NCBI RefSeq assembly: GCF_016629525.1 | Contig: NZ_AP024269.1 | Coordinates: 372,001-436,000 of the forward strand | DNA length: 64,000 bases | Origin: Kaistia sp. 32K | Lineage (GTDB): Bacteria; Pseudomonadota; Alphaproteobacteria; Rhizobiales; Kaistiaceae | Direction of reading: 5' to 3' | Shown: positions 34,320 to 51,296 of the stretch, piece by piece | Layout of the letters: the number at the start of each line of letters is the position of its first letter | Numbering within the stretch: position 1 is the first letter of the stretch | The notes under the pieces: model-generated | Told to the model about the DNA's origin: nothing | The model's database searches: none | The model's input: the letters and a program-made list of their open reading frames with translations, nothing else | Program-made: the position numbers and the translations under genes

Positions 34320-34345
34320 TGGTGCTGCAAGAGAGGATTGAACTC
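34320..34345. repeat. attL, left 26-bp attachment repeat
   Basis: This 26-base stretch is identical to 51222-51247, the tRNA-Thr 3' end including CCA. Outside it no tRNA structure continues, as expected for the copy displaced by integration. Confidence 0.9.
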
Positions 34346-34360
34346 GCTTCGCACGCTCCA

Positions 34361-34426
34361 AACCCTAGGAAAACTGCGGGCTTCCGAGAGGTGGCCCGCT
34401 AGGCTGTGGCACGGTCCTGTAGCACG
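34361..34426. repeat. Left-arm repeats shared with the right island end
   Basis: AACCCTAGGAA at 34361-34371 recurs at 51176-51186. Two tandem nine-base units, TGTGGCACG (34405-34413) and TGTAGCACG (34418-34426), recur as TGTGGCACG twice at 51141-51162 with the same 13-base period. Lying at both ends near the cores, they look like arm-type integrase or excisionase binding sites. Confidence 0.55.
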
Positions 34427-34546
34427 ATGTGGGTTGAAGGAACAAGAGTGCAGTACGAGAGTTCAGGCCGTCAACGAAACTCCTCCGACACCACCAAAAT
34501 GGCGCTTGCAAGGTGCCGCGAGACGCTCATGGTGGGCAACAAGCGC

Positions 34547-34675
34547 GCCGGAAGAAGGCGCAGCCCCGTCAATTTCCATTCTTTCCGCCGTTGGTTTGTC
34601 ACAAGGGCGGAGCGACCGGGCCAGCCGAAGAGTGAGCGGCTACTCGGGTGAACCTCAATTCAGCAAAATAGGGGC
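34547..34675 (+). pseudogene. Tyrosine integrase C-terminal remnant A
   Basis: The frame from 34547 reads RAGRRRSPVNFHSFRRWFVT and then RAERPGQP, the catalytic HxxR segment of DUF6538-type alphaproteobacterial integrases. It then breaks; a shifted frame a few bases on gives SGYSGEP, matching the conserved YSGG segment near the catalytic Tyr, with the intervening 20 or so codons deleted. It is a decayed relic of another integrase. The remaining bases to 34926 hold no recognisable gene. Confidence 0.65.
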
Positions 34676-34926
34676 ACGTGGAAGCTGTGGGCCTCGTGCC
34701 CTCCAATTGCGATCGAGGCTAAAGATCGCTGGGATTTCAAGCCTACGTTTGTTGCCCAGACAAAAAGAAGTGAAAGCAAGTTTCTCGCGCTATGCTCGGC
34801 AATTCGATGAAGCCGAATGATTTCCTGCCTTGTTTGATGGGCGGACCAACCTCCCGGCTTATGCTGCGTCGGTGCCATTGACTGGAGGCGGCCACGTCTT
34901 CCATCTTGCCCTAGACGAGAAGGGCA

Positions 34927-36366
34927 ATGCTGGGGGGAAAAGTGCCGCGTTTTTCAGATTTTTTCGGGCTGGGCCTGAGCCAGGCTCAGCTGGACTTTGT
35001 CGATGTCAGTAACGAGTATGATACACCCGTCTACGTTGACCCATATGCTATCGAAGTCCAAGACGACGAGTGGGCGGGGACCGCATCTGATTATATCAGG
35101 ATTTTCTTTAACGAAGTACTGGAGGCGCTGACTTCAGGTGATAAAGAACGTGCGCGCAATCTCATGGCTAATCTTCGTGAGCCAGCAGAAACGTTCCTAG
35201 GTGTATCTAATATGGAACCGAAGGGCCGAGGTGTCGGGTCTCATCAAGCAAATCAACTAATCAATGCCATCCTAGGAAGTAAAGCATTCTCAACAAAACT
35301 TTTGACAGATCTCTCTGAAATGGCTCTCTATGTGGAGGGGATCGATAGGGACAAAATATCCGATCTGACGACTAACGTAATCAGAGAGTTGCTGGTTGAC
35401 TACACTCAAAGCCAATGCGAACTCTACGATATAGAGACGCGGCCTTACAATGGACCTCCTCTCTGGGATGCGTCCCGCAGAAACTGGCGATCTAAACATG
35501 TAAACCTTCCATACATTGAAAACGATGCCGTAATTCTGGTCCCTAAATACATTGTTCGTAGGAAGTTGTCTCTGAATAGTCAGGATTTCTATAACAAACA
35601 AATAACTGACTTCTTGGTTTCTGAGAATATTAAAGCCAATAGCTCGCTCGTCCAGACCATAAAGGGGCGACAAAAAGTCTACAAGAAGGACATTCATACT
35701 CAGCATCCGAAGTCAAAAAATTTGATTGCGGATATGGTTGGGGCTCATCCAGACTTACTTGAGATGTACAAAGAGGTTGCTAAAAAGTACAGATCAATGG
35801 TCGTTATAGGTGACGATGACCCCACAGTGACCGCTGTTTGTGGGGATCTGGCATCGTTATTCGAACGAATTCCGGCCGGTGCCAAGACAGCAAGTGACTA
35901 TCATCGCCTAATTGTTGGGTCTTTCACCGCGCTGTTTTATCCATCTCTCATTTTACCTCGCAAAGAATGGGAGATACATGATGGGCGAAAACGTATCGAT
36001 ATAGCCTTCATGAATTCGGCTGACGGCGGCTTCTTTGGCCAAAGGCGCGACGATCGAACAATGAACGCCAATATGGTCCTCGTTGAATGCAAGAATTATA
36101 CCGACGACTTGGCGAATGAAGAAGTAGATCAGTTGCTCGGCCGCTTCGATGAAAACATAGGCAAGTTCGGGTTTATAACGTGCCGATCCGTCGACAATCT
36201 GGGGAGGCTGGAAGCCAGGCTGCGGGACGCTGCGGTGCGGAAGCAGGGCTATATTATTTGTCTGACGGATGAAGACATGAAGGCGATGCTCATCGCGAAG
36301 TCACAACTCCGAGATGAGGAGGTGGACCTGCTTCTATATGCAAAATTTCGAGACTTGATCAGCTAG
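34927..36366 (+). CDS. Uncharacterised protein with C-terminal PD-(D/E)xK nuclease-like domain
   Basis: The 479-residue protein has a long N-terminal part without recognised domain (SDFFGLGLSQAQLDFVDVS, TPVYVDPYAIEVQDDEWAG, NMEPKGRGVG) that I have seen as a widespread but unnamed family in accessory regions. Its C-terminus (about 340-440) reads HDGRKRIDIAFMN and NANMVLVECKNYTDD, giving the Asp and the ExK of a restriction-endonuclease fold, followed by a Gln-bearing helix EEVDQLLGRF. Base composition is clearly richer in A+T than the chromosome. A GTG at 34942 behind GGGGGGAAAA is an alternative start. With its neighbour it forms a two-gene, two-nuclease cassette. A role in phage defence is inference. 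Confidence 0.72.
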   Translation: MLGGKVPRFSDFFGLGLSQAQLDFVDVSNEYDTPVYVDPYAIEVQDDEWAGTASDYIRIFFNEVLEALTSGDKERARNLMANLREPAETFLGVSNMEPKGRGVGSHQANQLINAILGSKAFSTKLLTDLSEMALYVEGIDRDKISDLTTNVIRELLVDYTQSQCELYDIETRPYNGPPLWDASRRNWRSKHVNLPYIENDAVILVPKYIVRRKLSLNSQDFYNKQITDFLVSENIKANSSLVQTIKGRQKVYKKDIHTQHPKSKNLIADMVGAHPDLLEMYKEVAKKYRSMVVIGDDDPTVTAVCGDLASLFERIPAGAKTASDYHRLIVGSFTALFYPSLILPRKEWEIHDGRKRIDIAFMNSADGGFFGQRRDDRTMNANMVLVECKNYTDDLANEEVDQLLGRFDENIGKFGFITCRSVDNLGRLEARLRDAAVRKQGYIICLTDEDMKAMLIAKSQLRDEEVDLLLYAKFRDLIS

Positions 36367-36464
36367 TGGGCCCAGAACGGCCGAAAAATGCGAGGGGGCC
36401 AAACTCGATCGTTGCGGCCCCCACTTCCCCCCGAGGGGCTACCTTACTGAACAGCGAGAGTTAA

Positions 36465-37040
36465 ATGAGGCTTAGCTGGAGTGGCGCGCCCGACAGGATG
36501 CCGGAGGCCGAAGTTGCGATCCGCCTTGCTGAGTACTTAACGGAGCGGCCGGACTTTCAGGGTACGGTTGACGTGGCAATAGATGGTGCGTCTGTGTCCG
36601 TCGGTGGAGTGGAGGTCTTTGACATTCGGGGGTACCTCAGGGCTTATGGCTGGCAAGCTGTGCAGGGCACTGCGGTTGGACGCAATGATTGGACCGCAGA
36701 ATACACTAGAGATGCTGCGGCGATGCGCATCCACTCCCGTTCCGGCGTAGGCGATGTAGAAGCCTTAGTTGGCGGGCGGCGCCTCATTGCGGAATGTAAG
36801 AAGGGGCCGCTTGTGAAGAAGCCCGGCAGTCCGGAATATCCGTTACTGACGGCCGCCATTGGCCAAGCGCTACTTTTTCCGGCCCGCCCTGAGGATATTC
36901 TAGTTGCGGCGGTCCCGGACACGCCGACCTTTCAACGTATTGCTGCTGACTGGCGGAACCGCCCTCGACTGATCGCGTCTGGTATCCAGATTGCGCTTGT
37001 GAGTAGGCGAGGCCCGGTGACAGGGCTGGATCTCTCCTAA
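36465..37040 (+). CDS. Small PD-(D/E)xK nuclease-like protein
   Basis: The 191-residue product was not recognised as a named family. Its middle (about 90-120) reads HSRSGVGDVEALVGGRRLIAE followed by CKKGPL, giving the D...ExK core of a nuclease fold, with ECKK as the ExK element. The rest is mixed alpha/beta; the C-terminus contains DILVAAVPDTPTFQRIAADW. It starts 98 bases after the preceding nuclease-like gene; that gap has a GGGGGCC/GGCCCCC stem (36394-36422) with no T-run. Both genes point the same way. The pairing suggests a joint job, possibly DNA restriction. Confidence 0.62.
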   Translation: MRLSWSGAPDRMPEAEVAIRLAEYLTERPDFQGTVDVAIDGASVSVGGVEVFDIRGYLRAYGWQAVQGTAVGRNDWTAEYTRDAAAMRIHSRSGVGDVEALVGGRRLIAECKKGPLVKKPGSPEYPLLTAAIGQALLFPARPEDILVAAVPDTPTFQRIAADWRNRPRLIASGIQIALVSRRGPVTGLDLS

Positions 37041-37112
37041 GTTGGCATTTGGCTATACCCTGAGAGCACATGAGAAAGGTCGCCCATGGGGTAATGAACG
37101 CGCGAGCACCGT

Positions 37113-37432: not shown

Positions 37433-38515
37433 CTAGAAAGGGATTTCCTCGTCAAGATCAGGTTCGGCGGGAGGAGAGATTGCCGTCAGTCCCCGTCTCA
37501 GGATGAAATTTGGGACCTCCTGCTCGGCAAATTGATGGCGGCGCGCGATTTTCTTGGCGATCTCCGTGAATGGTGATTTTTCGCCATCGGGGGCCATCAA
37601 GCCGGCTTCGATATAGTAACCGAGAAGTTTTTGGAGGGTTCCCTTGCTTATCCTGAAAAATTCAGTTGTGTCATCGTCGGAGACTTCTTGAACGATAGCC
37701 GATCCTATCCTGACACAGCTGTCCTCGTCGTCAATCCAATATTCTCCGGTATAATCGTGTGTCCCCCATGCGAGATTTCCATGAACGATGGGGAACATCG
37801 TCATCCACGTTGTCCGGATCGTGCCACCACTGCCACGTCGGCCTCGGCCGGAGCGTGGTTGGTTGGGCAGAAAGTCAATGTCGATTGTAGCCGTTATTTC
37901 GGGGAGTTTTATGATGGGGATGTCAACTTCCAAGTTGCCAATAGTGTCTCGGAATTTGGCGTTTTCCTTCCTCACCTCATTTAGTTGCTCTAGAGCGTCG
38001 ACACTCGCAATTGCATCCCCTCGAACCCAACCGACGCGGGGCCTGGTTTGTTTTGCATTCACTAAGGCAGCCAAGACTGTCGCCTGAAGCTCGCCGGAGG
38101 ATGTCCATTGCGATCGGGTTCGCCCGCCTGATGCCTCTGTAATGAATGCTTCTAGGAGCTGCTTGCCCTCCAATGTGGGCTCAGTCTTGTCGGCGCTGAT
38201 CTGACCGCGCGCGCCGTGCAGCATTACAAGCACCGGTATATTCTGCGAAACAGCGTAGCGGAACTCCTTATGGGTGTAACTCAGTCCGTCCTCTGCAACG
38301 GAACCGTAGCGCCCCCCGATGATCAGCACGTAGTAGTCGCATTTGTCGAGAAGGGATTTGATCAAGGCAAAAGCCGTCTCGTCTGACGCGGGGAACGACT
38401 CCATCTGCACCGGAAAATCGCCCGCTTTTATAACGGTATCCTGCACCGCCCTCCGTTCGTCCTTAAGATCCTCATAGGTGGAGCTTATGAAGATGGAATA
38501 TCGCTTATCGTGCAC
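37433..38515 (-). CDS. DUF4062-domain protein (TIR-like fold)
   Basis: The 360-residue protein begins with DUF4062 (about 5-100): YSIFISSTYEDLKDER, DYYVLIIGGRYGSV and SYTHKEFRYAVSQNIPVLVM are its standard motifs. DUF4062 resembles TIR domains and is frequent at the front of STAND NTPases in bacterial defence. Here no NTPase follows; residues 150-360 are an unrecognised region with a coiled-coil-like stretch (LEQLNEVRKENAKFRDTIG) and a mixed C-terminus. The start is GTG behind TTAGG. It is second in an operon, 18 bases after the DUF4145 gene. Effector or sensor function is inference. Confidence 0.82.
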   Translation of the reverse strand: MHDKRYSIFISSTYEDLKDERRAVQDTVIKAGDFPVQMESFPASDETAFALIKSLLDKCDYYVLIIGGRYGSVAEDGLSYTHKEFRYAVSQNIPVLVMLHGARGQISADKTEPTLEGKQLLEAFITEASGGRTRSQWTSSGELQATVLAALVNAKQTRPRVGWVRGDAIASVDALEQLNEVRKENAKFRDTIGNLEVDIPIIKLPEITATIDIDFLPNQPRSGRGRRGSGGTIRTTWMTMFPIVHGNLAWGTHDYTGEYWIDDEDSCVRIGSAIVQEVSDDDTTEFFRISKGTLQKLLGYYIEAGLMAPDGEKSPFTEIAKKIARRHQFAEQEVPNFILRRGLTAISPPAEPDLDEEIPF

Positions 38516-38533: not shown

Positions 38534-39295
38534 TCAGTATTTTCCCTTGCTGCTATTCAGTTTTGTTATCTTGGCCTTGATAGATTTCTTGTCATAGACC
38601 CCCAGCAGAACGTCTTCGAGAACGTCGACCGCATCAAAGAAGGCTTCATCTGAAACGGCCGTTCCGTGTGTGCCAAGGTTGCCTATGTGGCGCAATGCGT
38701 CGAGAGCATCCTTGGAGTCGGAGCCATTGGCTGTCGCTGCGAAAACGTCGATCCGCGAAGCAAGGTCCATCCTTGTTGTTTTTCCGGAAGCACTGCCTTT
38801 GTCTCGCGGAATATTCTGATCGTCAAGCATCTGCTCAACAGCAGTGCGAAGTCGGCCGATAGATGCCGCGAGGTCTACCCAATAGAGCTGAAATGCCAGT
38901 TGAAGCTGTTGCTGGACGTCGGATGGGGTGTCGACGGGCGGACGAAATAGCGGTGGCGCGGGGAAAACAGCGTGAGGTTGTAGGTGATCTATGTAACCCC
39001 AGCCTTTGTACCCTGGCTCGTCGTGGTAGAATGGAACCATTTCCGTGTTCCCTGCAAGGGACACTACTTCACCGCAAGTGGTCTCATCACATTTCAACCG
39101 GAGTGCGAACCGCTTCTCGGACCACTCTGGCTCCCAGTCGTCATGCTGCTGTGCCAATGTTGAAAATTTTGGCTCATCGACATTCAAGCTGCCGGGTATT
39201 GCTTTCAATTTTCCCGGGGTACAACGGGGACAGGGTAGTCCGGGGACCATGTCCTGCGGAAAGGAAGGCTTCCACAACTCTCGATTGGCTGGCAT
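38534..39295 (-). CDS. DUF4145-domain protein
   Basis: The 253-residue protein has an N-terminal zinc-ribbon-like part (CPRC near residue 22, then CDETTC near 89) and a C-terminal DUF4145 domain (about 130-235), with IGRLRTAVEQMLDDQNIP and LRHIGNLGTHG. DUF4145 domains are thought to belong near the HEPN superfamily and occur attached to restriction enzymes; the RHIGNLGTH segment resembles the HEPN Arg-His motif. AAGGGG precedes the ATG. It is the first gene of a two-gene operon with DUF4062. The pair may act as sensor and effector; that is inference. Confidence 0.78.
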   Translation of the reverse strand: MPANRELWKPSFPQDMVPGLPCPRCTPGKLKAIPGSLNVDEPKFSTLAQQHDDWEPEWSEKRFALRLKCDETTCGEVVSLAGNTEMVPFYHDEPGYKGWGYIDHLQPHAVFPAPPLFRPPVDTPSDVQQQLQLAFQLYWVDLAASIGRLRTAVEQMLDDQNIPRDKGSASGKTTRMDLASRIDVFAATANGSDSKDALDALRHIGNLGTHGTAVSDEAFFDAVDVLEDVLLGVYDKKSIKAKITKLNSSKGKY

Positions 39296-39696
39296 TTATA
39301 GCCCCTTACTAATGCGGGTCTATATTTATTCGCGCCCAATCCAGTTAATCAATGCGCTTGGCTCTGGAAATGCGGGGAAACTGGCGGAAAAATCCGAAGG
39401 GGTGAAATCCAGCATTGCGGAGCGCGCATCACCCCCCCGCCGCCCATCGGCCACCCACAAGCCCACCATCGGCTACCCGTTCTCAGTCACCATAGGCCAA
39501 TGCCACGACGGCCATCGCCTCCTGGCCCATCGGGACCACATCTATCGCCACCGGTTGCGCGACAGGTAGCACGCCGCGCCGCGCCGTCCCCGGCGATGCC
39601 GCGCTCATCCCCGCCACTCTTCCCGTTTCACGCCGCTTCGATTTGGCTGTGCTTCAGGAGAAGCGCCAGAGCTGCCCCCGAACACGGCCATGCTTC
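39296..39696. other. Gap between the defence-like operon and the serine recombinase
   Basis: About 400 bases between divergent genes. A short frame from 39312 starts MRVYIYSR, which resembles the first residues of serine recombinases, but it loses similarity at once; it may be a 5' scrap of an older recombinase. Nothing else was recognised. Confidence 0.35.
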
Positions 39697-39774: not shown

Positions 39775-40419
39775 ATGTTCATTCGAGCCTATCTCCGCGC
39801 GTCCACGAAAGAGCAGGACGCAACGCGGGCTCAGTCCGACCTTCACAAGTTTGCTGAGGAGCGCGGGCTGAAGATCGCGGCCACCTACGTCGAGAACGAG
39901 AGCGGCGCATCGCTCAAGCGTCCGGAACTCTTTCGCCTCCTGGCTGATTGTTCGCCCGGCGACGTGCTGCTGATCGAACAGGTGGACCGCTTGAGCCGCC
40001 TGAATGCCACCGATTGGGAGCGCCTCAAGGACGAGATCAGGTCCCGCAGGGTGAAGGTCGTAGCGCTCGACCTCCCGACATCGTGGAGCATGATCCAGTC
40101 GAACCCCGACGATATCCAGAGCCGGATGCTCGACGCGATCAACGCCATGATGCTCGACATGCTCGCCGCCATCGCCCGTAAGGACTACGAGGACCGGCTC
40201 CGTCGTCAGGCTCAAGGGATCGCCAAGGCGAAGGAGGAAGGGGCCTATCGTGGACGCCCTGAGGACACCGAGCGGAACGCCGCTATCCTTCAGATGCTCC
40301 GGGGCGGGCAGAAGTGGCGTGACATCGCTGTGGCGACAGGCTGTTCCATGTCCACGCTGTCGCGGCTGGCGAAGCGGCTGGCTGACGAGCCCATGCAGAC
40401 GAACACGACGGAGGCTTGA
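39775..40419 (+). CDS. Serine recombinase (resolvase/invertase family)
   Basis: The 214-residue protein has the small serine recombinase layout. The catalytic Ser is in YLRAST (about residue 10), and conserved arginines lie in LIEQVDRLSRL. The long E helix is around NAMMLDMLAAIARKDYEDRLRRQAQG. A C-terminal helix-turn-helix (LRGGQKWRDIAVATGCSMSTLSRLAK) follows the GRP linker. Such proteins resolve or invert DNA between two short sites. The length and motifs are complete, so it should be active. It begins the phage-like part of the island. Confidence 0.9.
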   Translation: MFIRAYLRASTKEQDATRAQSDLHKFAEERGLKIAATYVENESGASLKRPELFRLLADCSPGDVLLIEQVDRLSRLNATDWERLKDEIRSRRVKVVALDLPTSWSMIQSNPDDIQSRMLDAINAMMLDMLAAIARKDYEDRLRRQAQGIAKAKEEGAYRGRPEDTERNAAILQMLRGGQKWRDIAVATGCSMSTLSRLAKRLADEPMQTNTTEA

Positions 40420-40526: not shown

Positions 40527-40586
40527 GGGCGGACGGGGCAAGGTCGGTCCGACCGTACTAGCAGCGGGGCTGTCGAGGGGCCCGTC

Positions 40587-40738
40587 GTGATCGAGGCGGT
40601 GCAGATCGAGAACATCGACTTCAGCGACACCTACGAGGCCAAGATCGAAGAGCGCATGAGCGCGGAGATCGAGGTCCAGAAGCTGAAGCAGAACGCCGAG
40701 CGCGAGAAGGTTCAGGCGGCGATCACCGTCACCCAGGC
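40587..40738 (+). pseudogene. SPFH/prohibitin-family gene fragment
   Basis: From a GTG the frame reads IEAVQIENIDFSDTYEAKIE and then AEIEVQKLKQNAEREKVQAA, the last part of the SPFH domain and the start of its coiled coil in prohibitin-like proteins. Similarity stops at ITVTQA, at the junction with the BRO-like sequence. Both the N-terminal and C-terminal parts are missing, so this is a deletion remnant. Confidence 0.65.
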
Positions 40739-41137
40739 ACGCCGTGGTTCCTCGCCGCTGACATCTGCCGCGCGCTCGGCCTTTCGTTGATCGGGGGTGC
40801 CGGGCGTCATCTCTTGAAGTTGGGGAAGGAGGAAGTCCGGCGCATTCCCCGCAATATTATTGCTGGGAAGGGAATGACCCAAGCCTCGCTTGTCACCGAA
40901 AGTGGCCTCTACAAGTTGGTCCTGCGGGCAAGCGGCGAGGACGCCAAGGAGTTCCAGAACTGGGTCACTCAGGTGGTCCTCCCGTCGATCCGGAAGGACG
41001 GCGGCTATGTCATGGGCGAGGAGAAGCTCGCGACTGGCGCGATGACTGAGGACCAGTTCATCCTGACCGCGATGCGGATGATGGAGGGCAAGGTGGCGCG
41101 CTACCGTGCGACAATATGTCAACACTTCACCATATGA
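40739..41137 (+). pseudogene. BRO-family phage antirepressor fragment
   Basis: In another frame from about 40742, PWFLAADICRALGLSLIGGAG, LVTESGLYKLVLRASGEDA, KEFQNWVTQVVLPSIRKDGG and YVMGEEKLATGAMTEDQ are the hallmarks of the BRO-N domain. The first residues are replaced by the SPFH fragment, and the reading frame leaves the family after MEGKVARY near 41105. The protein that regulates phage lysogeny is thus truncated at both ends. Translation could begin only at an internal TTG near 40787. Confidence 0.75.
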
Positions 41138-41320: not shown

Positions 41321-41674
41321 ATGCCACCCAAGCATACGTACTGCCGCGCAAATTCGCGACCGCAAGACCAGATCACGGCACACCTTGTGGCCGCCCATGA
41401 CCTCCTCACGGACTTAGCCACAAGCTCCGGGCTCACCTATCCCGAGAAGGACGCTGTGGCAGCACTGCGGGTAGTCAACGGCTTCCTCTTCGAGGCGGCG
41501 GTTGCGATGGCCTCAGGTGCCCCGATTGGCGCTAGCGGGGTCCTAGAGCCGCACCGATGGGCCCTCATGAAGCTCATCGAGTTCAACAGCCTCCTGCCCG
41601 AAGAGGCGCAGACGCTCCCCGCGCAGTGGCTCGCCTCGCTTGGCGCTTCCAAGCCCACCAAGGGGAGCAAGTGA
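41321..41674 (+). CDS. Hypothetical protein next to the phage integrase
   Basis: The 117-residue product is soluble and mostly helical (ITAHLVAAHDLLTDLATSSG, DAVAALRVVNGFLFEAAVAMA). I do not recognise a family. Its stop lies one base before the integrase ATG, so the two are translationally close and probably one operon; small helical proteins here are sometimes excisionase-like, but no winged helix is evident. Confidence 0.55.
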   Translation: MPPKHTYCRANSRPQDQITAHLVAAHDLLTDLATSSGLTYPEKDAVAALRVVNGFLFEAAVAMASGAPIGASGVLEPHRWALMKLIEFNSLLPEEAQTLPAQWLASLGASKPTKGSK

Positions 41675-42985: not shown

Positions 42986-43420
42986 GTGACTTCCGACCAG
43001 TTGCATCAACCCAAGACGCCTCGCAGCGTCAAGCGTCCCAGCCGCCGTCAGCCCATCCCCTTCATTGACGAGTTCGGCGCGGAGGCGCTCAAGATCCCCC
43101 TCGACGGCCACGGATTGCGCCATGCGATCGTGAGCCCTCGCGACTATCAGGGTGTCCTTGACAGCGGCCTGACGGGCGCATGGTTCACGAACGGCAACGG
43201 TCATGGACGGCGCTATGTCCGTACCTGGGCACCCGGCAGCCCCGGCACGCTCGCGCTCATTGCGCGGGTTATCTTGGAAGCGGGGCCCGGCGAGATCATT
43301 CGCTACGCTAACGGCGACAGCCTCGACCTGCGCGGTTCGAACCTGATGATCATGCGTGGCAGGGCAAAGCGGCGGGATAGCTTGTTGGCATCTACGGGCG
43401 GCCCCACTCTTGCCGCCTGA
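42986..43420 (+). CDS. Phage hypothetical protein
   Basis: The 144-residue product starts at GTG behind AAAGGAAATCA. Its C-terminal half, EIIRYANGDSLDLRGSNLMIM, resembles the NGDxLDNRxxNL segment that ends many phage HNH and AP2-like proteins, but the first metal-binding half is not evident. It overlaps the start of the polymerase-like gene by 65 bases. A DNA-binding role is a guess from that motif. Confidence 0.55.
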   Translation: MTSDQLHQPKTPRSVKRPSRRQPIPFIDEFGAEALKIPLDGHGLRHAIVSPRDYQGVLDSGLTGAWFTNGNGHGRRYVRTWAPGSPGTLALIARVILEAGPGEIIRYANGDSLDLRGSNLMIMRGRAKRRDSLLASTGGPTLAA

Positions 43421-44672
43421 CAGGCCCGTTCGCGACCTGCGGTTCCGACATGAACTGTATCCCGCGAGCGAGAAGCTTGCCGACCTCGCTTCCGACATCG
43501 TGGAGCAGGTTTTACAGCGCGAGTACAACCTCCGTCTCAGGCTTCGACAACGGAAGCCGGACGCTCTCGCCGGGCTGTACAATGCCATCGCCGTCATCGT
43601 CGCCAACCTCGCCCACTTCGTTGTGTTTCCGGGGGAGGAGCCAGCCATTCTTCTGCCTCTCGGACATGCCCGAACGGTGCAGAGCGAGCCCATTCAGCCG
43701 GGGTTTGGCAAGGGGCTTACGGCGGCCGTGGAGGGGCTTCAGGCGGTCGGAGTGGCTGTCGTTGCCCTGCCAACGGAACACCATCAGGCGACCACGATAG
43801 CGCCCTCTGCGGGCATCCGGGAACTGGTCTTGTCGCTCGCTCTAGCGAAGGAAGATTTCCGCTGGAGACACGTCCGGGACTGCATACGCCTGACCAGAAA
43901 GGACCACCAAGGAAGACGATGGGCGGTGCCCGTTCCGATGACCTCGGAGGCGGAGACACACCGAGAGGAAATGAGGGCGATCAACGGCCACCTGACCTCA
44001 GCCGATATCACCTATGTCGGCAATGATCCTGTCGATACCAGCGACAGGCTGATGACCCGCCACTTCAATCACCCGCTTCATGAGCCCAAGCCCTCCCTCG
44101 ACCTCGGCGGGCGACTGTTCGGCGGCTTCTGGCAAAGGCTCAGGCGGGGGGCTCGTCAGCATATCCGTATCAACGGAGAGGCCACTATCGAACTCGACTA
44201 CGGGCAGATGTTTCCCCGGCTAGCCTATGCCCATGTTCAAGCCAGTCCGCCCTCCGGCGACCTGTACGCGCTCCCGAAGCTTACCGAGGTCGGGCCGGAG
44301 CATCGGAGCGCGGTCAAGAAGGCTTTCAATGCCCTCATGTTCAAGGCCGGGGTCATGCGGATATGGCCGCCGGAGATTGCCAAGGGGCTTCCTTCGGACT
44401 GCTCCGTGGGGAAGTTCCGGAAGGCGCTCCTCGCCCGACATCCATTCCTCACGGACATCCTGAACACGGGCATCGGCTATCGGCTGATGAACCGGGAAAG
44501 CTGCATCATGTGCCGCGTGCTCATGGGCTGCATCGCTCTCGGCATCACCGTCTTGCCAATCCACGACGCTGTGCTCTGCCCCGCATCCGCAGCCTTCATG
44601 GTGCAGCAGATCATGGCCGATGCTGCTCTCCATATCGCGGGCCACACGGTCCCTGTCTCTGTGAAGACCTAA
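43356..44672 (+). CDS. Polymerase-like phage protein with family A palm motifs
   Basis: The 438-residue protein carries three motifs in polymerase order. RINGEATIELDYGQMFPRLAY (Asp281) resembles motif A. EHRSAVKKAFNALMF (about 315-328) resembles motif B, with Arg, Lys and Asn. VLPIHDAVLCP (His403-Asp404) resembles motif C. There is no exonuclease domain, and the first 240 residues are unlike PolA. I recall similar proteins, unnamed, in alphaproteobacterial plasmids and phages. The start is uncertain: GTG at 43356 has no clear ribosome-binding site and lies inside the previous gene. With RNase H next door, a role in phage replication or priming is likely but unproved. Confidence 0.6.
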   Translation: MAGQSGGIACWHLRAAPLLPPDRPVRDLRFRHELYPASEKLADLASDIVEQVLQREYNLRLRLRQRKPDALAGLYNAIAVIVANLAHFVVFPGEEPAILLPLGHARTVQSEPIQPGFGKGLTAAVEGLQAVGVAVVALPTEHHQATTIAPSAGIRELVLSLALAKEDFRWRHVRDCIRLTRKDHQGRRWAVPVPMTSEAETHREEMRAINGHLTSADITYVGNDPVDTSDRLMTRHFNHPLHEPKPSLDLGGRLFGGFWQRLRRGARQHIRINGEATIELDYGQMFPRLAYAHVQASPPSGDLYALPKLTEVGPEHRSAVKKAFNALMFKAGVMRIWPPEIAKGLPSDCSVGKFRKALLARHPFLTDILNTGIGYRLMNRESCIMCRVLMGCIALGITVLPIHDAVLCPASAAFMVQQIMADAALHIAGHTVPVSVKT

Positions 44673-44831: not shown

Positions 44832-45353
44832 ATGAACATCATCAATCCGACGACCGCGAACTCCGACCTCGCTCGCATCACCGTTCACACCGATGGAGCC
44901 TGTTCCGGCAATCCCGGCCCCGGTGGATGGGCCGCTATTATCGTTGCCCGCCATGACGGCATCGAAGCGCCCCGGCAGGATATCAGCGGCGGCGAGCGCG
45001 AGCCGACCACGAATAACCGAATGGAACTGATGGCCGCCATCAAGGCGCTCGGCTGGATCAAGGATCGGAAGAGCTTCTCGGCAGCAGTCCCGATCCACGT
45101 TCGCAGCGACAGCCAGTATGTCGTCAACGGTATGAACGTCTGGCTGGCGAAATGGCTCTCGAACGGCTGGCGGGGCTCCGACAAGCGACCGGTCAAGAAC
45201 CGCGACCTCTGGACCGAACTCCATGGTTTGGCGGGTGACATGGACGTGACGTGGCAATGGGTCCGAGGACATTCCGGCGACCCGTTGAACGAGGCCGTAG
45301 ACGCTCTGGCTGTTGCGGCAATCCCGAAGGACGAAAGCCGCCACGCCACCTGA
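44832..45353 (+). CDS. rnhA: Ribonuclease HI, phage-borne
   Basis: The 173-residue enzyme has the RNase H fold with its four acidic residues: Asp in HTDGACSGNPGPGGW, Glu in NNRMELMAAI, Asp in RSDSQYVVNG and Asp in NEAVDALA. The basic-protrusion helix (WLAKWLSNGWRGSDKRPVKN) is present. It cuts the RNA strand of RNA-DNA hybrids, for example primers in phage replication. The ATG at 44832 is chosen over a long upstream frame that crosses a poly-C tract. A terminator follows. Confidence 0.93.
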   Translation: MNIINPTTANSDLARITVHTDGACSGNPGPGGWAAIIVARHDGIEAPRQDISGGEREPTTNNRMELMAAIKALGWIKDRKSFSAAVPIHVRSDSQYVVNGMNVWLAKWLSNGWRGSDKRPVKNRDLWTELHGLAGDMDVTWQWVRGHSGDPLNEAVDALAVAAIPKDESRHAT

Positions 45354-45455: not shown

Positions 45456-47852
45456 ATGGCCAACGGCCTCTTTGGAACCAATATCGCCGCCCCGGAAATC
45501 CGACAGGCGCAGCTACAGCCCACCGCCGTCCCCGGAAGCACCTTCGTCCGTCCGCAACAGCGCGACGCGGGTGGCAACCTCCGGGCCCTAGCGGACGCCC
45601 TCGGCGGCCTCAATGGTGCCCTCCAAACCTACGGCACCGTCGTTGCTAAGGAGGAGCAGGACCCGCAGTCCCGCGCCAATCAGGAGTGGATCGCCAAGCG
45701 GCAACTGATGTCCGCCGAGGAGCTTCGTCAGGAAGCCAAGATCGGCTCCCCTGCGGGCGTTAGGATCCGCGAGGATGCCCTCAACTCGCTCCTGGGCGAG
45801 AAGGCCAACGAGGATTTCCGCACGAACTGGTCGACCTTCTACAACACCGGCTTCGATCGTTCGACCGGCAACGCCGCCGCCGAGTTTGACCGGATGCGCG
45901 AGGAGACCGCCGCCGCTCTCCCGAACGACCTGGCACGCGCAAACTTCTACCGGCTGACCGGGGATTACCGTTCTGCGTGGATGCAGAAGGACACAGAGGA
46001 GAAGACGGGGTACGTCAAGCAGCAGATCAATACGACGGTCATCGACAGCTTCCGAAACTCGATCGATGACAGCCTCAACATCCACAAGCTCGACCCCGCC
46101 AAGGCCGCCGAGATCGTCTTCACTAAGTCGGCTTCGAACCGAGATTTCCTCGGGCTCTCGGGGCAGGAGCAGAACGAAACGATCTTCGCGATTGCCGAGG
46201 AGTACGCCCTCAAGGGCAACGAGGAGTTGGCCCGAGCGCTGCTGGATGGTGTCCGGAAGGGCGCTGACGGCAAGGACCTTCCGCCCCTCTCCAAGATTGC
46301 TGGCTACGCGGACAAGTCCATCCGCCTGATCGAACAGGCCGGGGCCATCCGGGACAAGAACGCCCGCGAGGGCAGCTTCAAGGTCCGCGTCGAGGATGAC
46401 GATCTGATCCTGCGCGGGGCCTTCACGGAGGCTGAGGCAGAGAAGCGGCGGGGCAGTGGCGTCTATACCGACCCGGAACTGGCGAACATGGTCGACCAGT
46501 CCAAGCGGGCGGGCATCGCCATCCAGAACAAGAAGGCCACCGGCGAGCAGAAGCGGGCCCTTAGGGTCAACTCAGAGCGCGAGGAGGGGCGCGTTATCGC
46601 CCAAGCGTACAGCGCCATGCAGCGCGTCGGCGGCATCACCAGCATCAGGGACGTGGAAATCCCCAGCCCGACTGGCGAGGGCACGACGACGCTCTCCCGC
46701 GCCCGGTCCATCGAACTCGTGACGGACCTGTTCGAAGAGAACCTTGACGACCAGAAGGCGCAGAAGATCGCGCAAGGCACCCCGGAGGACGTGGCGGCGA
46801 AGCAGGTACAGAGCGCCCGCATCGCTTGGTACTCCATGAACAGGCTGGACAATGCCGAGTGGTCCCATGCCCTCAACGGCATTGCCAGTCTCGTCACCCC
46901 TGAGACCATCGCGGAGCGCGGCCAGCTTCTGCCTCAGATGACGGCCAACGCGGAGCTCTACCGGAACCTGAAGGCGGCCAATCCTGGCTACCTCTCGACC
47001 CTCATCACCGACAAGGCGTCGCGGGAGTTCCTGGAGGTCTACGATAGGGCGATCACAACGCGGAGGATGCAGCCGGACGAAGCGCTGTTGATGGCGGCGC
47101 ACGAGGTCGCCAAGGACGAGATCATGAAGGTGCGGTCGATGGTGTCACAACAGGACGCCGGGAAGATCGCGGACCGCCTTCTCCGGGATCTTGGGCTCAA
47201 GCGTGAGGGCGCGAATGCCGCCTTCGTGATGGGCCGCATCCATGACATGTCCCGCTCGGGGGCTTCAGAGAAGGAGATCAAGGCCGAGCTTCAGAAGGAA
47301 ATCGAGGACACGTCCGTGCCGATCAACGGGGTGCTGGTGTTTGACCATCGGGACCTTCCGGCTGACTTCCCAGAGCTTGTTCGGGATGAGCTCAAAGGCG
47401 TCTTCGAGGTGTTCGGGAAGCGCTACGGTCTCCCGGATGTCAGCGACCTCTTCATCGTGGCGGAGAGCGGTGAGAGCCGGTGGTCAGTATGGAGCAAGCA
47501 GCTGCGGCGGCCCGTTGGGGCGAGCATGATCACCCCGTCGATCCTCGACAGGCGCCGGGGCATCCGTCAGACGGCCCAAGACGCACTTACCCGCGAGATG
47601 GTGGCCAAGGACGACGCGAAGCGCGCCGCCGCAGAGAAGAAGTTCAACGAGGAGATCGCCTACGAGCGGGCCCGCTTGGCGGAGACCCGAAGGAACGGCG
47701 GCCGCTTCATGAACTGGCTGGCTGACGACCATGAGGCCCGCCTCAACAAGCGCATCGCGGAAGCACAGGCGGTCCGCCTCAGGGGCGAGCAGGAGCGCGC
47801 TAAGGCACTCCGAGAGGAGCGTCAGAGGCGGAACAACGGCGGCCGTCAGTAG
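45456..47852 (+). CDS. Internal virion protein of a T7-like podovirus (gp15-like)
   Basis: The 798-residue protein is long, helical and highly charged, with an unstructured start (MANGLFGTNIAAPEIRQAQL) and an Arg/Lys/Glu-rich end (RLRGEQERAKALREERQRR). Its size, layout, an internal segment on cargo chains (ANPGYLSTLITDKASREFLEV) and the C-terminal basic helix resemble T7 gp15, an ejected inner-core protein of 747 residues. It is the only virion gene here; capsid, tail, terminase and lysis genes are missing, so the phage is a remnant. The reading frame is nevertheless intact. No gp14 or gp16 is adjacent. Confidence 0.62.
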   Translation: MANGLFGTNIAAPEIRQAQLQPTAVPGSTFVRPQQRDAGGNLRALADALGGLNGALQTYGTVVAKEEQDPQSRANQEWIAKRQLMSAEELRQEAKIGSPAGVRIREDALNSLLGEKANEDFRTNWSTFYNTGFDRSTGNAAAEFDRMREETAAALPNDLARANFYRLTGDYRSAWMQKDTEEKTGYVKQQINTTVIDSFRNSIDDSLNIHKLDPAKAAEIVFTKSASNRDFLGLSGQEQNETIFAIAEEYALKGNEELARALLDGVRKGADGKDLPPLSKIAGYADKSIRLIEQAGAIRDKNAREGSFKVRVEDDDLILRGAFTEAEAEKRRGSGVYTDPELANMVDQSKRAGIAIQNKKATGEQKRALRVNSEREEGRVIAQAYSAMQRVGGITSIRDVEIPSPTGEGTTTLSRARSIELVTDLFEENLDDQKAQKIAQGTPEDVAAKQVQSARIAWYSMNRLDNAEWSHALNGIASLVTPETIAERGQLLPQMTANAELYRNLKAANPGYLSTLITDKASREFLEVYDRAITTRRMQPDEALLMAAHEVAKDEIMKVRSMVSQQDAGKIADRLLRDLGLKREGANAAFVMGRIHDMSRSGASEKEIKAELQKEIEDTSVPINGVLVFDHRDLPADFPELVRDELKGVFEVFGKRYGLPDVSDLFIVAESGESRWSVWSKQLRRPVGASMITPSILDRRRGIRQTAQDALTREMVAKDDAKRAAAEKKFNEEIAYERARLAETRRNGGRFMNWLADDHEARLNKRIAEAQAVRLRGEQERAKALREERQRRNNGGRQ

Positions 47853-47971: not shown

Positions 47972-48731
47972 ATGATTTGGGGCAAAATGCTGAACGCGAT
48001 CCTCTCAGGCAAGGCCGGGTCTGTATCGACAGGGGCTGAAGAAAACGTTTCATGGAAGCATATATTTAGGGCGAATGAGGATCTTCTAACGGCGACGATC
48101 TTCGAGCGTCTTTCGTACCTCGATGGAACGACGTGTTGGCAGATACTGCGTTCAACATTCGGCCCTGCGTTGCCCGAGCATCATGTTGCCATCATGAGAA
48201 AAATTGAGTTTTGGCCTAGGTGGTCAGACAGTTTGAATGAAGGGAGAAGTGTGGAGCCCGATGTCCTGCTCCAATTTGAACTTGGTGATGATCCTCCACT
48301 AAAAGTTGACCTTATCGTTGAGGCAAAGCTGGGTGGACAGCAATATGCCGGCCAATGGCGTCGTCAAATACAGTCCTACAGGAAGCGATCGATGGATGAT
48401 GGGGGGGCTGGAAGTAGACGCCGCCTATTTTCTCGCAATCGGAGGACTTGACGCCCCCGCTCGCCAGGTAATCGCTCGCCTTTTAGACCCCGCCCCGGCA
48501 GCCCCAGATAAGCACATCCGAGTTGTCGCCGCAGCGGCCGAGTGGAGCAAATTGGCCACAGCTATCCAAGAGACGAAGGCGATCAACCAGCAAACCCAGA
48601 GGGTGCTTGATGATGTAGCTCAAGCGCTTGAACTATTTGGGCAGGGGCACATCCATGCAATCAGTACTCTCGTGAATTTTGAGGCATTGAGATCCCTAGA
48701 CAGTCTCGGCTTTTTGAGGGGCCCCTTGTAA
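47972..48731 (+). pseudogene. PD-(D/E)xK nuclease-like gene interrupted at a G7 tract
   Basis: The first frame (47972-48451) reads EPDVLLQFELGDDPP, VDLIVEAKLGGQQYAGQW and RRQIQSYRKRSMDDGG, giving the Asp, ExK and trailing Gln of a nuclease fold. At seven G residues (48401-48407) it shifts out of frame. The second frame (to 48731) continues smoothly with LEVDAAYFLAIGGLD and a helical C-terminus. Removing one G joins them into about 252 residues. The tract could be a phase-variation switch, a recent mutation or an assembly error. It is followed ten bases later by an uncharacterised gene in the same direction. Confidence 0.68.
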
Positions 48732-48741: not shown

Positions 48742-49386
48742 ATGCCTATACCGAAGGAAACGTTGGCCGATGTTCGCCGTGCTTACCGGCTGATCTGGGG
48801 CTACCAGCGTCGTATTATGGATATCCTGAATTTGATGGCCGATGAGTTCGATAGCCACGAATTCTACTGTTGGAAAACTTTAGACAGGGATCCCCCTGCG
48901 AAGCGAGGGACGAACCCGCTCAAGAAGTGGGCCTGGGATCTCCTACCCCTCTACCAGGCCTCGTTCTTGTACACCTCTGTCGGTAGTGATCTTGGGGCAC
49001 TCAAGGCGGGGGAGTGGCTGCTCGAATTCTATGTAAATTCGGACAGCATCGATTTGAAGCGCTACCAGCCCGGCGAGCCTGATGCCCTGAAATTTGGCAG
49101 TGCTGAGAAGACCAATTCTACGATCTCGTTGGTGGCTTGGAAGTGTACATCAGATACCAAGGCTGATTGGTTTCGTGACGTCTGGAGTTATTCCGGGTGG
49201 CCGACGGGGAGCGATGTTTTGCAGATAGAGGATTACCCCGTTCGAGCAGTCAAACTCGAGTTTCCAATCGAGGATTTGGACGATAAGCCGGCTATCAAAG
49301 CGGCGGTCTCCGACTTTCGGGCCCTTCTGAAGGCGAAGCTTGAGATTGCAGATCCCACGATAGCTCAATTTGATAGTCCGCGGTGA
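48742..49386 (+). CDS. Uncharacterised protein paired with the G-tract nuclease
   Basis: The 214-residue product is soluble. It starts with a helical region (LADVRRAYRLIWGYQRRIMD) followed by alpha/beta segments with several aromatic residues (FYCWKTLDRDPPAKRG, EWLLEFYVNSDSIDLKRYQP). I recognise no family. The spacing of ten bases after the nuclease gene and shared A+T-richer composition point to a two-gene unit, possibly nuclease and specificity or immunity partner. Confidence 0.6.
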   Translation: MPIPKETLADVRRAYRLIWGYQRRIMDILNLMADEFDSHEFYCWKTLDRDPPAKRGTNPLKKWAWDLLPLYQASFLYTSVGSDLGALKAGEWLLEFYVNSDSIDLKRYQPGEPDALKFGSAEKTNSTISLVAWKCTSDTKADWFRDVWSYSGWPTGSDVLQIEDYPVRAVKLEFPIEDLDDKPAIKAAVSDFRALLKAKLEIADPTIAQFDSPR

Positions 49387-49465
49387 CTTTATGCATTTGG
49401 GGATGGGTGGTGCAGGTCGCGGCGAGGCGCACTGGGGCCGCTATTGGCCCTTTCCCCTCTGGCAA

Positions 49466-51140
49466 TTACCCCAACGGCTCCTTCGGGTACTTGTCCATCT
49501 CAGCCCGAAGGCCGCCCATGTCGCCATAGGTGTCGCCCAAGCCGGGCAGACGATGGCCCACGATATATTCGCGCTTCTCGTGGTCAATCCCTGCGGCTCG
49601 GGCACGTGTCACGAAGCGGTGCCGCCAACCGTGGTTAGGCTGTACCTCGGTATCCGTCACTCCAACGACCCCGCGCACCCACTCGCTCAAGCGGCCGCCA
49701 GCCGCCTTAGCTCGTGCCGAGTTCTTCTCTTGGTTTCCGGCGTCATTGATGAAAAGCGGACCGGCCCCGACTGCATCGATCATTGCCAGAAAGCCACGCT
49801 CCACGAGGTCAGCATGAACCGGCACGTCTCGATAGATGCCCGACTTGGTAGACCCCGCCTCGGGCTTCAATCGCATCACCCACCCGTCCGCTTCCTTACG
49901 GACATCGGAGCCGCGAAGCTGGGCCACCTCTGCGACGCGCGCGCCTGAATAAGCCATAAGCCACGGTAGCCATTGAAGGGCCCTGTGCGACGCGGAGACT
50001 CGCCGTCCCTTCTCGACACTGAGAGACGCAGACAGGATTGCCTTTGCCTCGGCATCGGTAAAACCCCTCTCGCGGTTTCGCTGCTTCTTGTCTGCGCCTA
50101 TGAATGTACCGCTGGCAGGGTTGACGTCCAAAGCGCCGTCAGCGACTTGGCGTCCATAGACCGTCCGCACACATGCAAGCTTCTTCGCGCTGATCGTTTT
50201 TGCCGACAGTCCCAAGGCCAGTAGATGGTCGCGCCAAGCGGCAATGTCGGCCCGAGATACGCGCAGCGGATCAGCGAGCTTCCGCTCTTTCTGGACGAAG
50301 CCCCCGAACTCCTCAACGAAGATGCTCCGGTAGGAGCGGATGGTTCTTGTGGACCGGGAGCCGTGTTTGCCGGGAACGCGCGCATAGGCAGCAAACACAT
50401 CTTCGAACGATCCCGCTTCACCAACGACAGCGACGGCGGTGGGAGGCACCAGTGGCACGAAGCGCTGCTCTACCGGATCAGGAGAATAGTCATCGCGCGA
50501 ATAACGTTTCAGCGTCACGGCAGCGTCAGTTGAGGCGCGCTCGACAGCCAGCAGGAGCCGCGCCCGACTAGCGGCGTCAACAACTTCGCCGTAGCGCGCC
50601 AATACCCAGTCCGCGAGCCAGCCAAAGCGGCGCTCCATGCCCTCAAGGGCCGCCGAGGGCACGCGGGGCAGGGCGTCGATAGCTCCGCTCATATCGGCAC
50701 CAAAGGCATTCAGCGCATCCTGTGCGGCGTCTCCGATATCCGATGAGAGGAACGGCGGCGATCCACATTTCGGGCGTTCCGGGGTTCTCCTCGAAGCGGT
50801 CCTTGAACAGCCGGTAGACCTCCCCGGACAGGGCGTTGATGCGCCGCTGCGACAGCGTTGCGGGGCCGGTTCTTAGGTTCTGCCAAACGGTCTCTAGGTG
50901 GGCCAGAGCGAGCCCTTGACGCTGACGGCCAACCGCCTCGTCGCTCGTCGCCAAGGAACAGCGCACGGTGTCGCCTAGGGTGACGACAACGCAATGCTCG
51001 GGGGAATTTCCGTTTGCGGGGAAGTCAAATCGGACTGGGAGGCCCCTCGCACGTTCTCGGATATCGGCGGGAACACGGAGCTTCAATTGGTGCCGAGAGC
51101 TATCTCGGCGGGCTGTCGGACGCGGCATTCTGAGCACCAT
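49466..51140 (-). pseudogene. Island tyrosine integrase with DUF6538-like N-domain, frameshifted
   Basis: The ATG at 51140 follows AGGAG and gives LRMPRPTARRDSSRHQLKLRV, the N-terminal domain found in alphaproteobacterial integrases. That frame reaches ENPGTPEMWIAA and then goes astray near 50753. The next frame carries on with FLSSDIGDAAQDALNAFGAD and the complete core-binding and catalytic domains: Arg in SGARVAE, HxxR in NHGWRHRF, Tyr in GDTYGDMGG. Removing one G in the GCCGCCG stretch would give a full protein of about 557 residues. The catalytic part alone (from 50692, 408 residues) remains open. It lies between its tRNA target and the cargo, reading away from the tRNA. Confidence 0.85.
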
Positions 51141-51186
51141 TGTGGCACGCTCCTGTGGCACGGTGGAGCAAGCCGAACCCTAGGAA
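51141..51186. repeat. Right-arm repeats overlapping the integrase ribosome-binding site
   Basis: TGTGGCACG occurs at 51141-51149 and 51154-51162, separated by four bases. On the minus strand this reads CGTGCCACA-GGAG-CGTGCCACA, so the integrase Shine-Dalgarno GGAG is the spacer. AACCCTAGGAA follows at 51176-51186. The same set is found near attL. Confidence 0.55.
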
Positions 51187-51221
51187 TGGCGCAGTCTTCT
51201 AACGATATCAACAGGATGAAG

Positions 51222-51296
<75 letters not shown>

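What the first reader, a model, noticed from the sequence alone, without database searches (positions are those of the whole stretch)
34320..51247. Composite integrative island in tRNA-Thr with a perfect 26-bp att repeat
The sequence shows a 26-base direct repeat, one copy forming the 3' end of an intact tRNA-Thr(GGT), with an integrase gene next to it and abrupt changes in base composition and gene content. Integration of islands at tRNA 3' ends by tyrosine integrases is well established. The cargo mixes defence-like genes with a T7-like phage remnant and has no conjugation genes, so it was probably assembled by serial acquisition.
Basis: partly seen in the sequence, partly recalled or inferred. 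Interest (0 to 1): 0.75.

Follow-up and report, generated by a model that had tools for sequence, protein, structure and literature searches.

The report
T7-like phage satellite in tRNA gene
This stretch of a soil bacterium's chromosome looks like a hitchhiker that steals the machinery of T7-like viruses: it carries look-alikes of the virus's DNA-packaging signal, of its gene switches and of one of its DNA-injection proteins, along with anti-virus genes.

Summary
The 26-bp att pair, tRNA-Thr and adjacent integrase are real; relatives show the tRNA occupied or apparently empty. The 'T7-like phage remnant', however, is a conserved module under purifying selection in three Kaistia genomes (gp15 dN/dS 0.11). 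Overlapping gene sets occur at other tRNAs in other Alphaproteobacteria with different cargo, often defence genes. In 14 such elements, searches found no capsid, portal, tail, terminase or RNA polymerase of a T7-like phage; only gp15, sometimes with gp14/gp16 pieces. The elements are enriched in T3/T7-type promoter sites (26 in 13 of 14 elements, 23 in the operon's sense; 5 in 65 control stretches). Ten of 14 match, in non-coding DNA, the sequence where these phages' genome ends are cut (0 of 66 host control loci). gp15 rows of phages and elements interleave. Best reading: an undescribed family of satellites of T7-like phages (Autographiviridae), expressed by the helper's RNA polymerase and packaged by its terminase. 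Induction, excision, replication and packaging are inferred. In this genome the integrase frame is broken.

The parts
34267..34319 (+). sequence left of attL that resembles the tRNA-proximal end of another island (G013); likely relic of an earlier tandem insertion
   Evidence: blastn window 34267-34345 vs G013 locus, 79%
34320..34345 (+). attL core, 26 bp
   Evidence: perfect repeat; same core at the left end of the G004 and G005 elements
34405..34429 (+). paired TGTGGCAC-like repeats, candidate integrase arm sites (left)
   Evidence: direct repeat D19 with 51141-51165; octamers at 34405 and 34418
34583..34626 (+). relic that reads like an integrase 3' end (by eye only), 84% like 37144-37187
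   Evidence: repeat family D7; 37048-37313 also in G004, 82%
34927..36366 (+). left cargo: candidate defence protein PDC-M36A, 479 aa
   Evidence: PADLOC 5.3e-45, phrog_27295 8e-96
36377..36436 (+). second phage-packaging-junction-like sequence, weaker
   Evidence: E 0.5 with the phage-only profile; 2.3e-7 with the iterated profile, which is not independent
36465..37040 (+). left cargo: 191-aa protein, nuclease-like by eye only
   Evidence: no Pfam or PADLOC match
37433..38515 (-). left cargo: DUF4062 protein
   Evidence: Pfam 1.4e-28
38534..39295 (-). left cargo: DUF4145 protein
   Evidence: Pfam 1.6e-11
39378..39444 (+). phage-packaging-junction-like sequence (candidate terminase site), 331 bp upstream of the resolvase
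   Evidence: 39378-39441 E 1.1e-3 with the phage-only profile; extent to 39444 from the iterated profile; geometry
39775..40419 (+). serine recombinase (resolvase/invertase family), 214 aa
   Evidence: Pfam 4.7e-24; dN/dS about 0.04
40568..40738 (+). fragment similar to the SPFH gene of phage Pasto
   Evidence: blastn 72% to Pasto 7432-7602; annotation
40787..41137 (+). BRO/anti-repressor fragment
   Evidence: Pfam Bro-N 5.7e-8, phrog_130 6.6e-19
41321..41674 (+). conserved small gene (orf117) next to Yint2
   Evidence: ORF cluster C5 in 6 of 8 elements
41676..42698 (+). second tyrosine integrase (Yint2), homologue of phage Pasto's own integrase
   Evidence: 55% identity; Pfam 4.7e-20 for the ORF from 41640
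42745..42766 (+). T3/T7-type promoter-like site 1
   Evidence: score 13.9; conserved in G004 and G005
42799..42820 (+). T3/T7-type promoter-like site 2
   Evidence: score 15.2; core conserved in G004 and G005, though the G005 copy scores only 8.0
42986..43420 (+). conserved orf144
   Evidence: ORF cluster C9 in 5 of 8 elements
43356..44672 (+). compact family-A polymerase-like protein, 438 aa (longest frame)
44832..45353 (+). RNase H, 173 aa
   Evidence: Pfam 9.2e-40 for the longer ORF 44706-45353; frame checked
45456..47852 (+). gp15-type internal virion (ejection) protein, 798 aa
   Evidence: 50% to Pasto over 98%; the only PDB matches below 1e-3 are three T7 core/gp15 entries; dN/dS 0.11
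47972..48731 (+). right cargo: PDC-M15A, split over two frames here (47972-48451, 48306-48731); one 253-aa frame in G005
   Evidence: PADLOC 7.8e-56 and 1.5e-11
48742..49386 (+). right cargo: PDC-M15B
   Evidence: PADLOC 1.6e-67
49466..50692 (-). tRNA-targeting tyrosine integrase (Yint1), main part
   Evidence: phrog_1 1.2e-26; Pfam 1.1e-3, below its cut-off; 91-92% in G005 and G004
50643..51161 (-). N-terminal part of the same integrase, in another frame here; one 580-aa frame in G004 and G005
   Evidence: cluster C4
51141..51165 (+). candidate integrase arm sites (right)
   Evidence: D19; octamers at 51141 and 51154
51222..51247 (+). attR core within the tRNA-Thr 3' end
51222..51296 (-). tRNA-Thr(GGT), integration target
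   Evidence: ARAGORN

Best explanation
The island is one member of an undescribed family of phage satellites that parasitise T7-like podoviruses (Autographiviridae related to Rhizobium phages Pasto and RHEph01). Proposed cycle: the element sits in a tRNA 3' end and carries defence cargo. When a T7-like helper infects, the helper's single-subunit RNA polymerase transcribes the orf144 - polymerase - RNase H - gp15 operon from promoters like the helper's own. The element excises through its tyrosine integrase and multiplies with its compact family-A polymerase and RNase H, perhaps primed by helper transcripts. The helper's terminase recognises the phage-type packaging junction beside the resolvase and loads the element into helper particles, to which the element supplies its own gp15 ejection-core protein. 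Shown by sequence: the att pair and tRNA, the conserved backbone, the gp15 homology and fold, the promoter-like sites, the junction-like site, no detected capsid/portal/tail/terminase/RNA-polymerase genes, purifying selection, and exchangeable cargo. Inferred: induction, excision, replication, packaging, and what gp15 does. The copy in this genome may be stuck, because its integrase frame is broken.
For: Related elements with att pairs: G004, G005; Rhizobiales AFS066368 tRNA-Arg, Paracoccus tRNA-Thr, Devosia psychrophila tRNA-Phe, Nitratireductor tRNA-Thr; G348 tRNA-Leu, 16 bp. Of 14 Pasto proteins plus T7 RNA polymerase searched in 14 elements, only gp14 (1 element) and gp16 (4 elements, two as short fragments) were found. 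gp15: 50% to Pasto over 98%; the only PDB matches below 1e-3 are three T7 core/gp15 entries; dN/dS 0.11. In the gp15 tree phage and element rows interleave: 7 label changes, at least 5 forced by well-supported branches. Promoters: a matrix from 10 phage sites gives 26 sites in 13 of 14 elements vs 5 in 65 control stretches at threshold 12, 23 of the 26 in the operon's sense; at threshold 14, 16 of 16. Enrichment remains with only the 5 Pasto sites (18 vs 6) or only the 5 others (14 vs 3) (threshold 12). Junction: a profile from 4 phage packaging ends hits 10 of 14 elements and one gp15-less element at E<0.01, but 0 of 66 host control loci; reversed sequences give one hit, E 5.1; same strand as the resolvase in the 11 of 12 loci where a resolvase match was found. 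Pasto's terminal repeat is annotated by its depositors from PhageTerm.
Against: No experiment, and no reads for a circular or packaged form. I recognised no terminase small subunit, capsid-remodelling gene or excisionase (the first, the others not searched for). Junction profile: nothing at E<=10 in 3 of 14 elements (L113, L114, L115), L111 only E 0.28; the window hit is modest (1.1e-3); two phage sequences are weak too (L096 0.064, RHEph01 1.0). One of 14 elements (L115) has no promoter site; in L086 the best site is antisense and in L084 it lies downstream of gp15/gp16. Controls are not silent: best control score 19.2, above the window's 15.2. The promoter training set is partly circular: the Pasto sites were first noticed through a seven-base word shared with the window, and RHEph01/L089 sites through a T3 matrix. 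T3 or T7 matrices alone gave few sites (T3, threshold 10: 4 in elements vs 1 in controls; T7: 2 vs 2). Of 25 further loci of the polymerase family only 2 had sense sites of 12 or more within 1.5 kb upstream. No helper of Kaistia was found; the RNA-polymerase family search was uninformative (controls silent). One element (Nitratireductor) keeps only about 60 aa of gp15. The integrase is frame-broken here.
Confidence: 0.75

Rival explanations
1. Degraded prophage of a temperate T7-like phage (such as Pasto, which has an integrase) that has lost most genes and sits in a defence hotspot.
For: Yint2 is 55% to Pasto's integrase, gp15 50%; an SPFH fragment matches Pasto; the BRO and SPFH pieces here look truncated.
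Against: Overlapping gene sets recur at tRNA-Thr, -Arg, -Phe and -Leu in different genera; purifying selection without stops in the backbone of three genomes; gp15 was exchanged several times; resolvase, polymerase, orf144 and RNase H gave no match in Pasto or the part of RHEph01 held.
Confidence: 0.1
2. A phage-triggered defence island, not a mobile satellite: helper RNA polymerase switches on gp15, which poisons the helper's ejection core so that progeny particles are dead.
For: Promoter sites upstream of gp15; defence cargo; several element gp15s pair with particular phage lineages.
Against: Does not explain the packaging-junction sequence, the integrases, the polymerase or RNase H.
Confidence: 0.1
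3. Ordinary integrative (mobilizable) element with a conjugative helper; phage-like pieces incidental.
For: tRNA att site, tyrosine integrase, cargo.
Against: No relaxase family in the Pfam scans of 18 element ORFs; phage promoter and packaging-end sequences unexplained.
Confidence: 0.05

Closest known systems
PICMI (phage-inducible chromosomal minimalist islands, Vibrionaceae; PMC10803314, abstract and section list read)
   Same: Small chromosomal element, dependent on virulent phage particles, protects the host from other phages, replication genes but no capsid-remodelling genes.
   Different: PICMIs sit next to fis and have three core proteins for excision and replication (abstract); here tRNA sites, a family-A polymerase with RNase H, phage-type promoters, a phage junction sequence and a gp15 ejection protein.
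P4-like satellites with defence hotspots (PMC9122126, search listing only)
   Same: Satellite with a variable slot of anti-phage genes.
   Different: P4-like satellites are described with P2-like phages; here the helper signals are those of T7-like podoviruses.
Temperate T7-like phages such as Rhizobium phage Pasto (MT708545)
   Same: Homologous integrase and gp15, same promoter type, same packaging-end sequence.
   Different: Elements lack, by tblastn, the phage's RNA polymerase, replisome proteins tested, portal, capsid, tail and terminase.
Mulch and Flayer satellites of Streptomyces (PMC10690885, search listing only)
   Same: Satellites of phages in soil bacteria.
   Different: Described as encoding encapsidation functions; no T7-like signals mentioned in the part seen.

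Membership tests
Phage satellite (general) | Integrates and can excise: integrase plus att pair | tested here: met
   Integrase and att pairs in several genera; excision itself not tested; integrase frame broken in this genome
Phage satellite (general) | Lacks the genes for a whole virion | tested here: met
   14 Pasto proteins and T7 RNA polymerase vs 14 elements: only gp14/gp16 pieces beside gp15
Phage satellite (general) | Genes or signals homologous to those of the helper | tested here: met
   gp15, Yint2, promoter type, packaging junction; the actual helper is unknown
Phage satellite (general) | Induced by helper infection | not testable with these tools
   Only promoter-like sites seen
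Phage satellite (general) | Packaged in helper particles | not testable with these tools
   Only the junction-like sequence seen
PICMI | Integration next to fis | tested here: not met
   tRNA-Thr site; other tRNAs in relatives
P4-like, PICI, cfPICI, PLE | Marker genes of these families | not tested
   No marker-specific search was made
T7-like prophage (Autographiviridae) | RNA polymerase, portal, capsid, tail, terminase | tested here: not met
   None in 14 elements at E<=0.01; a like scan finds portal, capsid and tail genes in the true prophage L116
Integrative conjugative/mobilizable element | Relaxase, oriT or type IV secretion genes | tested here: inconclusive
   None in Pfam scans of 18 ORFs; no dedicated search

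The most novel reading that the evidence does not exclude
A family of satellites built around threefold mimicry of T7-like phages: (i) a copy of the helper's genome-end cut site makes helper terminase package the element; (ii) copies of the helper's RNA-polymerase promoters drive its operon and prime its replication, finished by its own compact family-A polymerase and RNase H; (iii) it brings its own ejection-core protein (gp15, in some members with gp16 and gp14), swapped to match successive helpers, to re-purpose or sabotage the helper virion's DNA-injection machine. Satellites using ejection proteins in this way were not found in print (searches).
Probability: 0.45. Interest if true: 0.92.

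Novelty: new variant of a known kind. Interest (0 to 1): 0.85.

Why it matters
If true, T7-like phages, a model group of phages, have their own class of satellites in Hyphomicrobiales and at least one Paracoccus. They would show a new way to depend on a helper (borrowing its single-subunit RNA polymerase promoters and its concatemer cut site) and a new stolen part (the ejection core). They would also suggest how some defence genes travel in these bacteria, and give a handle on how gp15 works. In a sample of the order, gp15 was found in 11 of 397 genomes (9 element-like, 1 true prophage, 1 unclear) and the polymerase family in 36 of 397.

Tried and rejected
Rejected: a random T7 remnant (see rivals). 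T3-only or T7-only promoter matrices gave few sites. A first matrix from five Pasto sites was noisy: single shuffles reached scores of 14-21, above the best site of most elements other than L114. The search for single-subunit RNA polymerase in Kaistia was uninformative. The polymerase profile had no PDB sequence match; the fold search gave family-A polymerases. The gp15 profile's only PDB sequence match was a designed repeat protein. Promoter sites are not general to the polymerase family (2 of 25 unseen loci). Scanning viral contigs with the polymerase found 4 loci, none with a gp15 match in the DNA held. Two queries of my protein set were out of frame and (RNase H only) 85: a Pasto RNA-polymerase fragment and RNase H. 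The RNA polymerase was tested properly, RNase H (8 of 14 elements; none in Pasto). Rows left out: L082 duplicates L064; L085 is a phage-like contig and L116 a true prophage, so neither counts among the 14 elements; L117 (G187) was left out because its gp15 was not recovered by tblastn; L088 (truncated gp15) and L114 (interrupted gp15) are not in the gp15 tree, which also has long branches flagged by the program. No att pair was found for L087 or L112-L115, and none was sought for L111 (no tRNA held); their borders in the scans, and the right border of L110, were set by me. The iterated junction profile was trained partly on relatives of the window, so its E-value for the window is not independent. 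Papers seen in passages only: PMC12324425, PMC11389934.
Full report
OBSERVATION. The 26-bp repeat at 34320-34345 and 51222-51247 is exact, unexpected by chance (mean 0.00 over 100 shuffles) and occurs only twice in the 5.35-Mb genome. The right copy is the 3' end of tRNA-Thr(GGT). Further direct repeats inside both ends (D19, D20; octamers at 34405, 34418, 51141, 51154) look like integrase arm sites. The genus is Kaistia: G004 contig 12 has the same length (773,329 bp) as the Kaistia defluvii JCM 18034 contig.

COMPARISON WITHIN THE GENUS. All 13 relatives match at least part of the right flank. Two carry a related element between the same 26-bp cores: G004 (17.1 kb) and G005 (19.4 kb). G007 and G010 carry other islands at the same tRNA with 47-bp repeats, and G013 another 26-bp-core island. 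G001, G002, G003, G006, G008, G011 and G012 show no second core in the 17-20 kb fetched; G009 (720 contigs) cannot be judged. G001 and the G007 contig that ends in the core share their left flank. In G000 the left flank is not ancestral: window 3763-15909 corresponds to the left neighbour of the G004 element, and 34267-34345 resembles the end of the G013 island. So this is an integration hotspot with tandem history, and a clean 34319|51248 empty site is not to be expected.

A CONSERVED MODULE WITH CARGO. Between G000 and G004 the blocks 39.4-40.5, 40.9-47.9 and 49.5-51.4 kb are conserved; with G005, 39.4-40.5 and 40.9-51.4 kb. The stretch 34.4-39.4 kb differs in all three except for a 0.27-kb relic shared with G004. 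Left slot: PDC-M36A, DUF4062 and DUF4145 here; an Old-type ATPase in G004; PDC-M60A/C in G005. Right slot: PDC-M15A/B here and in G005, almost nothing in G004. Codon comparisons show purifying selection and no stops in the backbone genes: resolvase dN/dS 0.04, Yint2 0.09-0.12, gp15 0.11, Yint1 0.14-0.16, RNase H 0.19-0.29, polymerase 0.32-0.34.

BEYOND THE GENUS. The genome-contig scan with the gp15 alignment gave 7 loci: K. defluvii (= G004), Rhizobiales AFS066368, Paracoccus sediminis, a Mesorhizobium contig that reads as a phage, Devosia psychrophila, Devosia Root685 and Nitratireductor B36. In the bacterial elements gp15 lies with resolvase, orf117, Yint2, orf144, polymerase, RNase H and a tRNA-end integrase in varying subsets, four of them bounded by exact repeats of a tRNA end: tRNA-Arg (17 bp), tRNA-Thr (24 bp), tRNA-Phe (17 bp) and tRNA-Thr (23 bp). 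A search of 397 genomes of the order found gp15 in 11; I examined the 8 places not yet seen: one true prophage (G115), six element-like loci, and one (G187) where tblastn did not recover gp15. A class-level sample gave 2 of 385 including G000. Cargo elsewhere: Drt2 reverse transcriptase (Paracoccus), HNH effector-like (AFS066368), and a type II methyltransferase left of the Devosia Root685 module, whose left border is unknown; several other cargo ORFs had no family match. Fourteen Pasto proteins and T7 RNA polymerase were searched in the 14 elements: only gp14 (one element) and gp16 (four elements, two as short fragments) appeared.

PROMOTERS. Pasto has five same-strand copies of an 18-22-bp word with at most four mismatches (none on the other strand; shuffles give 0.25 at four mismatches); one lies some 420 bp before the portal gene, one just after the RNA-polymerase gene and one just after the terminase gene. 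RHEph01 and L089 have copies 400-470 bp before the portal gene and after the terminase gene, L093 one after the terminase gene. A matrix from these ten sites has annotated T3 promoters as its top four hits in T3 and annotated T7 promoters as its top three in T7. This recovery is not fully independent, as the RHEph01 and L089 sites were picked with a T3 matrix and Pasto's were first noticed through a seven-base word also present in the window. In the elements the matrix gives 26 sites of score 12 or more in 13 of 14 (13.8 per 100 kb) against 5 in 65 control stretches (1.1 per 100 kb). Of the 26, 23 lie in the sense of the operon; at 14 or more, 16 of 16. With the Pasto sites alone: 18 vs 6; with the other five alone: 14 vs 3 (threshold 12). 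In the window the two sites (42745, 42799) lie 54 bp apart between Yint2 and orf144, and their cores are kept in G004 and G005. Two elements without a gp15 match (L156, L078) also have a strong site some 300-340 bp upstream of the polymerase match, but most further polymerase loci do not (2 of 25).

PACKAGING JUNCTION. A blastn of the 14 elements against 12 phage sequences turned up short (30-72 bp) non-coding matches between the region after the phage terminase gene and the region upstream of the element resolvase, in 7 elements. In Pasto this sequence is split exactly between the record's last bases and the start of its annotated terminal repeat, so it should be the concatemer cut site. A profile from four phage junctions was run on all 164 sequences held (1.67 Mb). 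Leaving aside the training phages and duplicate copies, every hit at E<0.01 is in an element: 10 of 14 (window, L064, L066, L083, L084, L086, L087, L088, L110, L112) plus L156. Of 66 host control loci (458 kb) the best hit is E 9.2; reversed sequences give one hit, E 5.1. The T7 record's weak, not significant hit (E 5.7) ends at 39775, and its right terminal repeat starts at 39778. Of 12 loci compared, 11 have a resolvase match, and there the site is on its strand, 169-1701 bp upstream (L111 and L156 included). A pattern scan of the viral contigs gave three, all T7-like phages with the site some 290 bp (two) and 410 bp (one) after the terminase match; two of the three are contigs already seen as L091 and L098.

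EVOLUTION OF gp15. In a 25-row tree, element and phage rows interleave (7 changes; at least 5 forced by starred branches; clustering by label no better than shuffles; some long branches). AFS066368 pairs with phage L089 (100/100), G348 with the L085/L093/L095/L098 phages (100/100), Paracoccus with L092/L096 (97/90). gp15 has thus moved repeatedly between phages and elements that keep a related backbone, as expected if it must fit the helper's virion.

LIMITS. Nothing here shows induction, excision, replication or packaging. In this genome the integrase and PDC-M15A frames are broken; unbroken copies exist in G005 (both) and G004 (integrase). The helper of the Kaistia elements is unknown. Ten literature searches found no description of such satellites in the held open-access library; most subscription journals are not covered.

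Noticed in passing
G000 contig 1, 4541500-4561400 (L162): A second possible element in the same genome: polymerase-family gene, a resolvase 75% identical to the window's, a gp15-like N-terminal fragment and a tRNA-Ser.
   Followed up: partly
L115 (G397), 2613-16500: Element with gp14, gp15 and gp16 pieces together, i.e. most of the T7 ejection core, and no other virion gene detected.
   Followed up: partly
L088, 9857-11161: Nitratireductor element keeps about 60 aa of the gp15 N-terminus, followed by an HNH-like (by eye) 295-aa gene without a PADLOC match.
   Followed up: partly
window 36377-36436 and 39378-39444; L064 6210-6285 and 8791-8863; L087 2783-2831 and 3592-3644: Two junction-like sequences per element flank part of the cargo; cargo may turn over by recombination between them.
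   Followed up: no
G007 contig 15 (L070, L071) and G010 contig 4 (L075): Other, larger islands (about 41 and 45 kb) at the same tRNA-Thr with a longer (47-bp) core repeat.
   Followed up: no
window 40568-40738: SPFH-gene fragment like that of phage Pasto, next to a truncated BRO gene: perhaps a decayed part of the module in this genome.
   Followed up: partly
window 15909-34267: Lineage-specific region (glycosyltransferase, TonB receptor, MFS transporter, AraC and LacI regulators) between the G004-like flank and attL.
   Followed up: partly
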